Of a stretch of DNA of 64,000 bases, positions 54,164 to 57,506 are shown piece by piece; the stretch's first letter is position 1; each line of letters begins with the position of its first letter. Made by a program: the position numbers and the translations under genes. The stretch lies in NCBI GenBank assembly GCA_017551505.1, contig JAFZLL010000058.1, forward strand, positions 1 to 64,000, given 5' to 3'. Below the pieces are notes generated by a model. It was not told the DNA's origin and made no database searches. It was given only the letters and a program-made list of their open reading frames with translations. The DNA comes from Eubacteriaceae bacterium (GTDB lineage Bacteria > Bacillota > Clostridia > Eubacteriales > Anaerofustaceae).

Positions 54164-54520
54164 ATGGCGCACATATTGACTGAAGACGACAACTGGTTCA
54201 TTGACCTTGACCGAAAAGACCCTATTACACACGAAGGATTCCAGCTTGGCGATGAAGTGATAGTTTGCAGGGCATGCCGCTGCGTGCAATTGAATGACGT
54301 ATGGGAAATGGGGCCAACGGGATGCAAATACTGCGGAAGCAGCGAAGCCTCCGGAGATTTCGACAGAGATTTCATCGAGCATAAAGTCTCCGGGGCAACG
54401 ATAAACAAAGCAGGTCCGATAAGGATCACCCATAAAAAGAAAAAGAAGCTTTGGCCGTATTTCGCAGCAGGAGCTGCAGCATTAGCGCTGATCGTTCTGC
54501 TTATCCTGTATTTCCTATAA
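54164..54520 (+). CDS. Tail-anchored protein with a degenerate prokaryotic RING-like domain
   Basis: The 118-residue product has a cysteine-rich N-terminal domain. GFQLGDEVIVCRACRCVQLN carries C35, C38 and C40; W47 and GCKYCGSSE with C54 and C57 follow. The spacing matches the second half of prokaryotic RING-type binuclear treble clefs (C-P-x-C...G-D-x-V-V-C-x2-C...C-W...G-C-x-x-G-C). The first Cys pair is replaced by Asp19/His23, so one zinc site may be lost or altered. A lysine-rich stretch (91-95) precedes a single C-terminal helix (about 98-118), so the domain faces the cytoplasm. It converges on the E1-E2 operon and could be its E3-like partner; that is inference. A plain zinc ribbon is the alternative. 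Confidence 0.72.
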   Translation: MAHILTEDDNWFIDLDRKDPITHEGFQLGDEVIVCRACRCVQLNDVWEMGPTGCKYCGSSEASGDFDRDFIEHKVSGATINKAGPIRITHKKKKKLWPYFAAGAAALALIVLLILYFL

Positions 54521-54537
54521 ATATATGGCAGTATAAC

Positions 54538-54579
54538 ATATACCCCCTTTACTGGACACAACCAGCAAAGGGGGTATAT
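54538..54579. repeat. Long palindromic hairpin between convergent genes (copy 1)
   Basis: ATATACCCCCTTT (54538-54550) pairs perfectly with AAAGGGGGTATAT (54567-54579), with an inner CTGG/CCAG stem. No clear T-run follows. It has the same architecture as the hairpin at 60045-60082. It probably terminates both converging transcripts. Confidence 0.75.
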
Positions 54580-54597
54580 ATCAGTGACTGACTTATT

Positions 54598-55884
54598 TTA
54601 TTTTTCATTGTACTTACGGTGTTTTCTGCTGTACTCTGGCATTATCGCATCGTAATCCGCGGAAAGCTCATAATACCTCCGGGAATGTGTTTCAGCGGAG
54701 CGTACGGGCACTACATGGAATGGAGGAATGCCCAGAGCTCTCATGGGGAGATCCAGTATCTCGGGATCTGTCGAATCTAGCGGAAGTTTTGAGAGTGACA
54801 CGTCCTTCGGTTCGTTGATGTAGTTCTCACCGTATTCTTTCCTGGCTATGCAGTCATCGCAGTAATAATCATCGGTAAAGACCAGATGCTGAGGCTGGAA
54901 TATCTTTTTTTCTTTCCCGCAATTAGGGCAGCGGACCGTGGTGATGAAGGATTTATCGGTCTCCTCATCGAGCATGAGCTCGTCATAACCGTCCTTCGCG
55001 GTATATTCCAGGAATTCCCTCAATGTATTATCGCAGGAGAACGGAGTCTCTATTATGACATACCGGGCGTCCAGCTGATGCTGGCGGCAGTTCTCATCGA
55101 TTTCGATGGGAAAACGGTACATCATATCCAGCGCTCCGTTCATGTATATCTCCACACCATATGAAGGATTGATATCGCACAGTATCTTGCAAGCCTGCTG
55201 GACCTGCAGCCCGGATACCGCAGCAGACGCAGTCTGCACCGTAGGGATAAAACCCTGCTCAAGCGCTTTTCGTTTGGCTACGTCGCAGCTTTCCCTGAAA
55301 CGCTTTTCAAACTTGTATTTCGGGGCATTGCATTCGAAACAGCCTGTCTGATGCCCATTCATGATGTCGACTGTAAAGTTGAGCCCGCCTATGCTGGCAT
55401 CGATGTACGGGATGTCATATCGCATGCATATCTTATTGACGTACATACGGGTCTCGGCGTTGTCGAGACAGCCCAGAACTATATCGGCCTTGCGGAACAC
55501 TCCGTCACCAAGGCCGTAAACTATGTCACCGTCGAAATAATCGACGCATGCAGTATCTTCCAGGTTTATTTCCCGGACTCTTTCGGCAGCCAGCTTCGCT
55601 TTTTTCTTGCCCACGTCGTTCTGCGTAAAGAGTACCGTACGCGTCAGGTTGCTTGTCTCGATGGTATCCATATCGCAGATGAAGATATTGCCGAAGCCGA
55701 GGAGCGCCAGGTTCTTTAAAGTCTCATTTCCGATGGCACCGGCGCCTGTAACGATGACCGTCGAGTGCTTTATAATCTCCTGCTGCCAGCCGGGGATCCT
55801 CCCCTGACGGCTGAATTTGCCGTTTTCCGGACTTTCGGGATCATCCTCAAGGTCATATTTTTTTATCGCCTTAAAACCCTTCAT
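54598..55884 (-). CDS. E1-like (ThiF-fold) activating enzyme of a ubiquitin-like system
   Basis: The enzyme would adenylate the Ubl C-terminus and pass it to its own cysteine. The 428-residue product has GKFSRQGRIPGW, the nucleotide loop TGAGAIGNE (46-54), the acidic ICDMDTIETSNLTR (69-82), KKAKLAAERV and LGCLDNAETR. The likely catalytic Cys200 is in RESCDVAKRK. Cys182/185 with Cys266/His269 can form the structural zinc site. An added C-terminal domain (about 275-350) starts like a beta-grasp fold (DNTLREFLEYTAKDGYDEL) and carries a zinc ribbon CPNC (319-322)/CDDC (342-345). It is the last gene of the operon, 24 bases after the JAMM gene. Confidence 0.9.
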   Translation of the reverse strand: MKGFKAIKKYDLEDDPESPENGKFSRQGRIPGWQQEIIKHSTVIVTGAGAIGNETLKNLALLGFGNIFICDMDTIETSNLTRTVLFTQNDVGKKKAKLAAERVREINLEDTACVDYFDGDIVYGLGDGVFRKADIVLGCLDNAETRMYVNKICMRYDIPYIDASIGGLNFTVDIMNGHQTGCFECNAPKYKFEKRFRESCDVAKRKALEQGFIPTVQTASAAVSGLQVQQACKILCDINPSYGVEIYMNGALDMMYRFPIEIDENCRQHQLDARYVIIETPFSCDNTLREFLEYTAKDGYDELMLDEETDKSFITTVRCPNCGKEKKIFQPQHLVFTDDYYCDDCIARKEYGENYINEPKDVSLSKLPLDSTDPEILDLPMRALGIPPFHVVPVRSAETHSRRYYELSADYDAIMPEYSRKHRKYNEK

Positions 55885-55908
55885 AATTTATTTACCGCCA
55901 AGACAGGA

Positions 55909-56574
55909 CTATTTTCTGAGCTCTTTTAATACCGAATCATCGCTGGATGTCCTGAATTTTGCCACGTCAACGTATTCTTCCCCTTCGGGCACGACGAATA
56001 TGCAACTGGCTTCCTTCACTTCACCGCCGTGGAAAGCTCTCCATTCCAAAGCCTGGGGATTCAGCACGAGCGCGAACTGCCAGTCATTGAAATAATCCTT
56101 TTTTTGAGTCTGCGCGTCAGTGACCGACATGAATACATTCAGGAAAGCGGGGTGAGTATGATACCAGCCGACCCTGCGCAGTTTGCCTTCGGACTGCTCA
56201 ATGAGCTTCATTTCCCTGTTGGTGGCATCGATGTTCGAATCATGTCCGATAATGACGTGGACAAAGGAACTGTTGGTATCCCGTGCGGGCACCATGTGCT
56301 CCGCGACAGCGTAAAGCTTTCCTGTTGCGGGATCCTTATAGACGTTCCCTACCATATATCCTGCCTGTTCGATCATGTTTTCATCGTCTGACTTATTCCA
56401 ATGTATATGCTCATCGAGTTCCCTGAGGGCCTGAGGCGTCAGGAACAGCAGATATGTGCCGGGATCGCTCTTGGTATAGGAATAGGGATAACTATCGTTT
56501 AACAACTCATCAGGTATCGGCCTTTCTTCGGGAACGAATTCCCCAGATCTTCCGATCACTTTAAATCCTTTCAA
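55909..56574 (-). CDS. JAMM/MPN-domain metalloprotease (deubiquitinase-like)
   Basis: The 221-residue product has the JAMM motif: Glu69 (MIEQAGYMVG), then GWYHTHPAFLN with His139 and His141, and MSVTDAQTQ with Ser150 and Asp153. All zinc ligands and the catalytic Glu are present. The family cleaves isopeptide bonds or trims Ubl precursors. Since the neighbouring Ubl ends two residues after Gly-Gly, precursor trimming and deconjugation are both likely. I chose the TTG at 56574 because AAGGAGG lies just upstream; the frame is open to 56604, but that part contains the ribosome-binding site. It lies between the Ubl and E1 genes. Confidence 0.9.
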   Translation of the reverse strand: MKGFKVIGRSGEFVPEERPIPDELLNDSYPYSYTKSDPGTYLLFLTPQALRELDEHIHWNKSDDENMIEQAGYMVGNVYKDPATGKLYAVAEHMVPARDTNSSFVHVIIGHDSNIDATNREMKLIEQSEGKLRRVGWYHTHPAFLNVFMSVTDAQTQKKDYFNDWQFALVLNPQALEWRAFHGGEVKEASCIFVVPEGEEYVDVAKFRTSSDDSVLKELRK

Positions 56575-56636
56575 TCTTTCCTCCTTAACTCTGACAGAGA
56601 TCAAGGCATGCTGGAATGCATGCCCTGAGATGACAA

Positions 56637-56897
56637 TTATTGGTTCCCGCCCTGCGGTATATCGATAAGATCGATGGTGCAGCCGTCGGTGAGGCCTGCG
56701 GACTCAAGGGTCTGATCCCCTTCGATCTTGGAGCCTCCACTGACAGCCAGCCTGTATGTCTTCTGTGCATCAACACCGGTGATGAATTCTTCAGCGACAA
56801 GGGCTTCTATGATCTCGTCAGCAGTCAGGTCCGGCTCGATCTGTGTCTCCAGATAGGCTCCTGTGGAAGGATGTCTGAATTTTACCAAGTACTCCAT
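56637..56897 (-). CDS. Ubiquitin-like beta-grasp protein ending in Gly-Gly-Asn-Gln
   Basis: The 86-residue product has the strand-strand-helix-strand pattern of the beta-grasp fold: MEYLVKFRHPSTGAYLETQI, the helix LTADEIIEALVAEEFI, KTYRLAVSGGSKIEGDQTL and the final strand GCTIDLIDI. It ends Pro-Gln-Gly-Gly-Asn-Gln, so Gly83-Gly84 would become the active C-terminus after removal of Asn-Gln. The body recalls YukD/EsaB-type ubiquitin-like proteins. AAGGAG lies seven bases before the ATG. Lys46 and Lys57 could allow chains, though this is speculative. Confidence 0.9.
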   Translation of the reverse strand: MEYLVKFRHPSTGAYLETQIEPDLTADEIIEALVAEEFITGVDAQKTYRLAVSGGSKIEGDQTLESAGLTDGCTIDLIDIPQGGNQ

Positions 56898-57008
56898 AAA
56901 TAATCTCCTTATAATATGTATTTACAGGATAACAATATCCGATCAATTCGGTATAAACCGCTCTACCCGGCTGCTTTACGGTTTAAACTGCCGGGAAGTT
57001 TAAAGGTC

Positions 57009-57506
57009 TCACATTATATCGGGCGTTTTGATTTCCGGAAGAGGCTGAACGTCACAGGGGAAAAGGCGCGGATTCTTTTTATACCATTTATAGGCTTCCT
57101 GATTTGCGGGGCGCGCCGGATTGACCACCGCAGGGTCGAACTGCAGAGACTGCAGAAGTCTCACCACAAAATGCCCGAGGCTCTCGGACGCGTTCCAAAA
57201 ATCCCCGGAACACCATTTCCCGTTCTTAAACCAAACCGGGTTATACGCCTTCGGCTGTCCTTCCATGAATGCGAAGGGAGCGTTGCGGGGATAGTCCTCT
57301 GAAAGCGTTATCCTGACCTGGCATGAGTCCATCATCTCATTTTGCCCGCAGTAGGTGCGAATATGGATCGTCAGCAGATATTCGTCTGCATAAGGCTCCT
57401 CCCCTCCCGTAACAGTCACAGTGACCAGAGGGCTCTCATCAATGAGCCTCATCTCCAGATAATCATTTTTTAGCCTCATGCGACGGATCTCATCAAAACT
57501 CGGCAT
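57009..57506 (-). CDS. E2-like ubiquitin-conjugating enzyme
   Basis: The 165-residue product has the UBC fold. DEIRRMRLKNDYLEMRLI forms the first helix, then VTVTVTGGEEPYADEYLLTI and CQVRITLSEDYPRNAPFAFM (the YP..AP element) follow. KAYNPVWFKNGKWCSGDFW holds the likely catalytic Cys99 in the position usual after the HPN-like loop, here YNP. The end FDPAVVNPARPANQEAYKWY matches the last crossover helices. AGGAG lies seven bases before the ATG. It heads the operon E2, Ubl, JAMM, E1. Confidence 0.9.
   Translation of the reverse strand: MPSFDEIRRMRLKNDYLEMRLIDESPLVTVTVTGGEEPYADEYLLTIHIRTYCGQNEMMDSCQVRITLSEDYPRNAPFAFMEGQPKAYNPVWFKNGKWCSGDFWNASESLGHFVVRLLQSLQFDPAVVNPARPANQEAYKWYKKNPRLFPCDVQPLPEIKTPDIM

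What the first reader, a model, noticed from the sequence alone, without database searches (positions are those of the whole stretch)
54598..57506. Complete bacterial ubiquitin-like conjugation operon: E2, Ubl, JAMM, E1
Four adjacent minus-strand genes encode every core step of ubiquitin-type chemistry. Seen in sequence: E2 with Cys99 after an HPN-like loop, a beta-grasp Ubl ending Gly-Gly-Asn-Gln, a JAMM protease with an intact HxH...SxxD motif, and an E1 with nucleotide loop and Cys200. From established knowledge, related bacterial operons (Bil, Bub and the Cap2/Cap3 part of CBASS) tag target proteins during phage defence. This one differs from CBASS because there is no cyclase or effector nearby. 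The gene order and the E1's extra zinc-ribbon domain may define a distinct subtype.
Basis: partly seen in the sequence, partly recalled or inferred. Interest (0 to 1): 0.95.

Follow-up and report, generated by a model that had tools for sequence, protein, structure and literature searches.

The report
Five-gene bacterial ubiquitin-like tagging system

Summary
The four genes are real: E2, Ubl, JAMM and E1, all on the minus strand. They form a recognisable set: relatives of the E1 nearly always sit beside an E2, a Ubl and a JAMM. A fifth component was missed. The convergent plus-strand gene at 54164-54520 is the only one of 363 window ORFs found by a profile of the relatives' next gene (E = 1e-11). 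It encodes a RING-like domain lacking one of the two zinc sites, followed by a membrane anchor. The system is not Bil, Bub, CBASS or ThiS/MoaD. It belongs to the YukD-like-Ubl/E1/E2/JAB/RING kind predicted by Iyer, Burroughs and Aravind. In the E1 tree it lies in a distinct, scattered clade, mostly with RING-like rather than canonical RING partners. The zinc ribbon is general to the E1 family. The order E2-Ubl-JAMM-E1 is shared with two gut/rumen Clostridia. The E2 has Cys99, but its HPN motif reads NPV, unique among 80 Cys-bearing E2s compared. Best explanation: reversible Ubl conjugation, JAMM trimming the GG-NQ tail. Phage defence is plausible (a prophage copy beside a restriction-modification system; TIR and protease neighbours) but unproven. 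New variant of a known kind.

The parts
57009..57506 (-). E2-like ubiquitin-conjugating enzyme, 165 aa; Cys99 kept, HPN motif replaced by N89-P90-V91
   Evidence: UQ_con E=7.2e-4; 45% identity, E=4e-45 to L017 E2; alignment A8; motif census
56637..56897 (-). Ubl, 86 aa, YukD-like beta-grasp protein, C-terminus ...IPQ-GG-NQ, so needs trimming to expose GG
   Evidence: YukD E=2.7e-5 (below cut-off) and 13 of 17 family members match YukD; relatives end in AG/GG plus 0-5 residues in most cases
55909..56574 (-). JAMM/MPN+ metalloprotease, 221 aa from TTG, all catalytic residues present (E, HTHP, S-x-x-D); no transmembrane segment
   Evidence: JAB E=1.8e-6; Rpn11-like PDB hits; motif alignment; hydropathy
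54598..55884 (-). E1-like activating enzyme, 428 aa: adenylation domain, Cys200, CxxC/CxxH zinc site (C182, C185, C266, H269), C-terminal region with inserted zinc ribbon (C319, C322, C342, C345)
   Evidence: ThiF E=4.2e-48; family invariants; AF2 pLDDT 84 and Foldseek best hit UBA3 over about 450 columns
54164..54520 (+). RING-like protein (one zinc site lost: C35, C38, C54, C57 kept; DPIT and the W47 region replace the other ligands), C-terminal membrane anchor, 118 aa; candidate E3; convergent with the operon
   Evidence: leave-one-out profile E=1e-11, only hit of 363 window ORFs; hhalign to Prok-RING 96.8%, E=3e-10; AF2 pLDDT 90, Foldseek top hits mostly RING E3s but all E>0.3; TM hydropathy
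54534..54583 (.). strong hairpin between the two convergent stop codons, likely shared transcription terminator
   Evidence: RNA fold -39.7 kcal/mol, z=-7.9 (- strand) and z=-5.9 (+ strand); no long T tail, so not listed

Best explanation
A complete, reversible ubiquitin-like conjugation cascade of the YukD-type E1/E2/JAB/RING kind, in a distinct clade. Proposed steps, all inferred from sequence: (1) the JAMM removes Asn-Gln and exposes the Ubl's Gly-Gly; (2) the E1 adenylates the Ubl and holds it as a thioester on Cys200; (3) its C-terminal region hands it to Cys99 of the E2; (4) the tail-anchored RING-like protein recruits the loaded E2 to the inner face of the membrane and promotes transfer to a target; (5) the JAMM removes the tag. 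Because the E2 lacks the HPN His and Asn, the final transfer probably depends on an unusual oxyanion arrangement, on the RING-like partner, or on an acceptor other than a free lysine. The likely purpose is conflict with phages or other mobile elements (judged about 45%; the confidence given is for the conjugation cascade).
For: All catalytic residues of E1 and JAMM and the E2 Cys are conserved in a family whose members nearly all co-encode E1+E2+Ubl+JAMM. Fifth gene: profile hit 1e-11, RING homology by hhalign, RING-like predicted fold, neighbour of the cassette in L017-L024, L026, L027, L030 and L033, absent from the 390 other class genomes sampled, which also lack a close homologue of this E2. 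Exactly the ligand pairs of one cross-brace zinc site are lost and those of the other kept. E1 profile closest to canonical eukaryotic E1s. Membrane anchor in all RING-like proteins tested; L021 has PEGA and lytic transglycosylase domains behind it. Conflict role: prophage-like relative L102 beside a type II restriction-modification system, TIR fused to the RING-like domain in Kordia, trypsin-like and PNP-family neighbours matching PADLOC models. Scattered distribution over many phyla and absence from all 66 other same-order genomes held indicate horizontal transfer.
Against: No biochemistry. The E2's HPN is NPV; two relatives' Ubls (L017, L030) end in QA without Gly, so the chemistry may differ or be decaying in this branch. 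The RING-like gene is on the opposite strand, so co-transcription is not given. The window sequence alone gets no Pfam RING hit, and every Foldseek E-value is above 0.3. No defence island or effector was recognised beside the window's copy.
Confidence: 0.72

Rival explanations
1. The cascade charges the Ubl onto the E2 but does not make isopeptide bonds in the usual way: with NPV in place of HPN, it forms other linkages (oxyester, N-terminal) or uses the E2~Ubl itself as a signal at the membrane. This is a sub-case of the best explanation, not exclusive with it.
For: NPV is unique among 80 Cys-bearing E2s while 38 of 46 otherwise near-invariant E2 positions are kept; HPH and HVN also occur in the clade, so the motif is labile there.
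Against: H89 and N91 are only two of eight near-invariant positions changed; one sequence alone cannot show adaptation; the linkage cannot be seen from sequence.
Confidence: 0.3
2. A decaying system: acquired by transfer and losing function, so that conjugation no longer works in this organism.
For: HPN lost, the RING-like gene separated onto the other strand, no RWD/pseudo-E2 partner as in most clade members.
Against: All five frames are open; E1, JAMM and RING-like motifs are intact; the Ubl still has GG, which its nearest relative lacks; the gene borders are tidy, with a strong hairpin between them.
Confidence: 0.12
3. A sulfur-carrier pathway (ThiS/MoaD type), with the Ubl donating sulfur and the JAMM trimming it.
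For: The E1 has the ThiF fold and Foldseek finds ThiF and MoeB well.
Against: Scores far below ThiF and MoeB cut-offs; E2 and RING-like partners are conserved; family profile closer to eukaryotic E1.
Confidence: 0.03
4. Same chemistry, but an envelope or protein quality-control tag rather than defence: the membrane-anchored ligase marks proteins for a Clp-type unfoldase.
For: RING-like protein is membrane-anchored, with envelope domains in relatives; L017 carries a ClpB-like AAA+ ATPase behind its cassette.
Against: Very patchy distribution and mobile-element and effector company in relatives are unlike housekeeping; the L017 AAA+ matches a defence-candidate model; in the window's genome it matches only one 904-residue frame of ordinary Clp size, on another contig.
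Confidence: 0.25

Closest known systems
YukD-type Ubl/E1/E2/JAB/prokaryotic-RING systems (Burroughs, Iyer, Aravind 2011, as cited in Kaur et al. 2020 PMC7159879; forerunners in Iyer et al. 2006 PMC1779556)
   Same: E1, E2, YukD-like Ubl with C-terminal Gly, JAB/JAMM and a RING-family protein in one cluster
   Different: Here a RING-like protein with one zinc site, E2 with NPV, no EAD, FtsH or caspase partners, order E2-Ubl-JAMM-E1 with the RING-like gene convergent; sister clade to the canonical-RING cassettes
Bil (BilABCD)
   Same: Four functions: Ubl, E2, JAMM, E1; JAMM exposes the Ubl C-terminus
   Different: BilA has two beta-grasp domains and BilD two adenylation domains (PMC11354881); here one of each; BilD model only 28.6 bits and no BilA/B/C hits
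Bub
   Same: Bacterial Ubl conjugation with E1 and E2 domains
   Different: Solved BubCD is one 458-residue chain with weak similarity to this E1 (E about 3e-7); here E1 and E2 are separate and a JAMM is present
CBASS Cap2/Cap3
   Same: E1 and E2 chemistry, JAMM-type isopeptidase
   Different: No CD-NTase or effector recognised nearby; no fused E2-E1; Cap3 model only 12.6 bits vs cut-off 200
Crinalium plasmid cassette NC_019754
   Same: E1 with zinc ribbon, Ubl, E2 and JAMM adjacent to each other
   Different: Two Ubls, HPN intact, JAMM with a hydrophobic segment, VirD4-like neighbour; deep branch in the E1 tree

Membership tests
YukD-type E1/E2/JAB/RING Ubl system | E1, E2, Ubl and JAMM co-encoded | tested here: met
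YukD-type E1/E2/JAB/RING Ubl system | YukD-like Ubl with C-terminal Gly | tested here: met
   YukD 2.7e-5 (25.3 vs cut-off 27 bits), 13 of 17 family members match YukD; GG-NQ tail
YukD-type E1/E2/JAB/RING Ubl system | E2 with catalytic Cys and HPN oxyanion motif | tested here: inconclusive
   Cys99 met; HPN not met (NPV)
YukD-type E1/E2/JAB/RING Ubl system | RING-family E3 component | tested here: inconclusive
   RING-like gene present but with one zinc site lost
YukD-type E1/E2/JAB/RING Ubl system | Protein conjugates formed | not testable with these tools
   needs biochemistry
Canonical prokaryotic RING (Pfam Prok-RING_1) | Curated-family match and eight zinc ligands in two sites | tested here: not met
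   No Pfam hit for the window protein; pair 1 and pair 3 ligands missing. Related by hhalign, so called RING-like, not RING
Bil | Ubl with two beta-grasp domains | tested here: not met
   86-aa single domain
Bil | Matches to BilA-BilD models | tested here: not met
   only BilD at 28.6 bits, below the generic E1-E2 model at 54.3 bits
Bub | Fused E2-E1 (BubCD) | tested here: not met
   separate E2 and E1 ORFs; weak similarity
CBASS | CD-NTase and effector beside Cap2/Cap3 | tested here: not met
   PADLOC scan of ten window neighbours; Cap3 12.6 bits vs 200
ThiF/MoeB sulfur-carrier E1 | Score above the NCBIfam cut-offs | tested here: not met
   118 vs 275.25 and 85.2 vs 266 bits
Anti-phage defence system | Protects from phage | not tested
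   only context from relatives

The most novel reading that the evidence does not exclude
The clade is a distinct, undescribed membrane-tethered Ubl ligase branch of bacterial immunity: its E3 is a RING that has lost one zinc site (DPxT in place of the first CxxC), its parts recognise one another through a shared short motif (K-K-x-F-x-I/V) that also marks accessory or effector proteins, and in the window's branch the E2 works without HPN, by non-canonical transfer chemistry.
Probability: 0.25. Interest if true: 0.8.

Novelty: new variant of a known kind. Interest (0 to 1): 0.58.

Why it matters
The E1 lineage is closer by profile to eukaryotic ubiquitin E1s than to the sulfur-carrier E1s, and the sampled family keeps E1, E2, Ubl, JAMM and, mostly, a RING-related protein together. 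It is therefore a compact bacterial model for how a ubiquitin system with an E3 works and arose. A RING that keeps one of its two zinc sites, and an E2 without HPN, would test which parts of ubiquitin chemistry are dispensable. I found no experimental study of this branch in the papers held here; coverage of subscription journals is poor, so this is not proof of absence.

Tried and rejected
E2 single-sequence scans of viral contigs and plasmids found nothing, so relatives came from genome searches and an E1-alignment scan. Zinc ribbon as subtype mark: rejected, since it is in the whole family. A C-terminal UFD (E2-docking domain) in the E1: the Foldseek best hit UBA3 spans the full length and the predicted strands are compatible, but a profile of that region found only zinc ribbons, no UFD; left as inference. 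The first test of the plus-strand gene against five clostridial RINGs was indecisive (second of 501 against shuffles); the closer relatives settled it. Sigma-70 promoter and terminator scans were no better than shuffles. The AAA+ ATPase of L017 has only one match in the window's genome, a 904-residue frame of ordinary Clp size. The key Bil, Bub and Burroughs 2011 papers are not held; statements on them rest on PMC11354881, PMC7159879, PMC13373217 or on memory.

Full report
OBSERVATION. The four minus-strand ORFs are present as described and match E1 (ThiF 4.2e-48), JAMM (JAB 1.8e-6), Ubl (YukD 2.7e-5) and E2 (UQ_con 7.2e-4) models. The gaps between them are short: 111, 62 and 24 bases. The JAMM most likely starts at TTG 56574, behind AAGGAGG. 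JAMM and E1 share an N-terminal MKGFK(V/A)I. The operon's base composition is like its surroundings.

RELATIVES. None of the other 66 genomes of the same order has the E2. In 391 genomes of the class, six others have more distant E2s, in cassettes with Ubl and E1 and, where the contig allows it to be seen, JAMM and RING. Profiles of each component show that nearly all of these E1s sit with E2, Ubl and JAMM, most with a RING or RING-like gene. These profiles were seeded from the same loci, so the census describes the family and is not an independent test. The E1 tree splits into clade A (23 rows; scattered over Acidobacteriota, Bacteroidota, Cyanobacteriota, Bacillota, Nitrospirota, Pseudomonadota and Chloroflexota; 99/93) and clade B (Planctomycetota, Chloroflexota, Bacillota; 99/96). 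The window is in clade A, sister to a rumen Clostridiales contig, L017 (100/100; 49% identity). L017 and L030 have the order E2-Ubl-JAMM-E1 followed by the RING-like gene, all on one strand; in the window the RING-like gene is convergent. In the acidobacterial part of clade A no RING-like gene was found.

FIFTH GENE. In most of clade A a protein with the pattern DPxT...GDxI.xCxxC...W...C and a transmembrane segment follows the cassette. A profile built without the window finds one ORF of 363 in the window: 54164-54520, E=1e-11. It is single-copy in the genome and absent from the other 390 class genomes sampled. hhalign against the canonical RINGs of clade B gives probability 96.8%, E=3e-10. 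Six of ten clade-A members weakly match Prok-RING_1 (E 0.002-0.7, same register); the window protein itself does not. The AF2 model of 63 residues has pLDDT 90; its nearest PDB folds are mostly RING E3s (RNF13, Ark2C, RNF165, RNF12; TM about 0.6), with no single significant E-value. The lost ligands are pairs 1 and 3, those of one cross-brace site; pairs 2 and 4 remain. I call it RING-like, a candidate E3.

ACTIVE SITES. E1: GxGAxG, D71, D73, R82, K95, C200, C182/C185/C266/H269 and the ribbon Cys are invariant or nearly so in the family. JAMM: all ligands present. Ubl: relatives end mostly in AG or GG plus 0-5 residues; the window in GG-NQ; L017 and L030 in QA without Gly. E2: Cys99 kept; HPN is NPV, unique among 80; 38 of 46 near-invariant positions are kept.

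CLASSIFICATION. The E1 family profile matches eukaryotic Uba1/Uba7 (about 1e-46) and Uba2 better than ThiF (1e-35) or MoeB (4e-31). Bil, Bub and CBASS tests are not met. The kind was predicted from genome context by Iyer et al. 2006 (PMC1779556) and Burroughs et al. 2011 (not held; cited in PMC7159879).

FUNCTION. Shown: gene content, conservation, motifs, relationship. Inferred: conjugation, membrane site, defence. Context from relatives: a prophage-like contig L102 with UmuDC, a RING-like-looking zinc protein (by eye; not a profile hit), a J-domain protein, E1-Ubl-E2-JAMM and a type II restriction-modification pair; TIR fused to the RING-like domain in Kordia L026; trypsin-like and PNP neighbours; a ClpB-like ATPase in L017; a plasmid copy in Crinalium. 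The window's own neighbours show no defence system (the one hit is an HTH regulator matching many models).

UNEXPLAINED. The motif K(K)xFx(I/V) occurs 72 times in 97 clade-A components, against a mean of 17 (maximum 33) in 100 shuffles; clade-B components show no excess, 19 against 31. It lies at E1 N-termini, E2 C-termini, the RWD-JAMM linker, a small zinc-ribbon protein and accessory proteins. The pattern was chosen after seeing it, and some loci are closely related, so the count overstates independence.

Noticed in passing
L018-L024, L026, L027 (components); window 55909-56574 and 54598-55884, N-termini of the proteins: Shared short motif K(K)xFx(I/V) in many components and in accessory proteins of clade-A cassettes (72 vs 17 expected by shuffling); in the window JAMM (KGFKVI) and, loosely, E1 (KGFKAI).
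   Followed up: partly
L102:2409-10500 (IMG/VR contig): Prophage-like contig with UmuDC, E1-Ubl-E2-JAMM cassette, J-domain protein and a zinc protein that looks RING-like, directly beside a type II restriction enzyme and methyltransferase.
   Followed up: partly
L026:4824-5567: TIR domain fused to the RING-like domain in Kordia, upstream of the Ubl cassette.
   Followed up: partly
L017:5596-8288: Second E2-like protein without Cys (NPA instead of HPN) followed by a ClpB-like AAA+ ATPase, behind the closest relative of the window's cassette.
   Followed up: partly
L030:563-1146 and L017:1129-1371: Ubls ending in QA without any C-terminal Gly; in L030 two identical tandem copies.
   Followed up: no
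L021:6996-8504: RING-like domain, membrane segment, PEGA and lytic transglycosylase (SLT_2) in one protein.
   Followed up: no
L022:10772-13240 and L026:1480-3321: Large uncharacterised proteins that carry the KKFxI motif at their N-termini (the first without a Pfam hit, neither with a PADLOC hit); possible new system components.
   Followed up: no
window 54534-54583: Very stable hairpin between the convergent E1 and RING-like genes (z=-7.9).
   Followed up: yes
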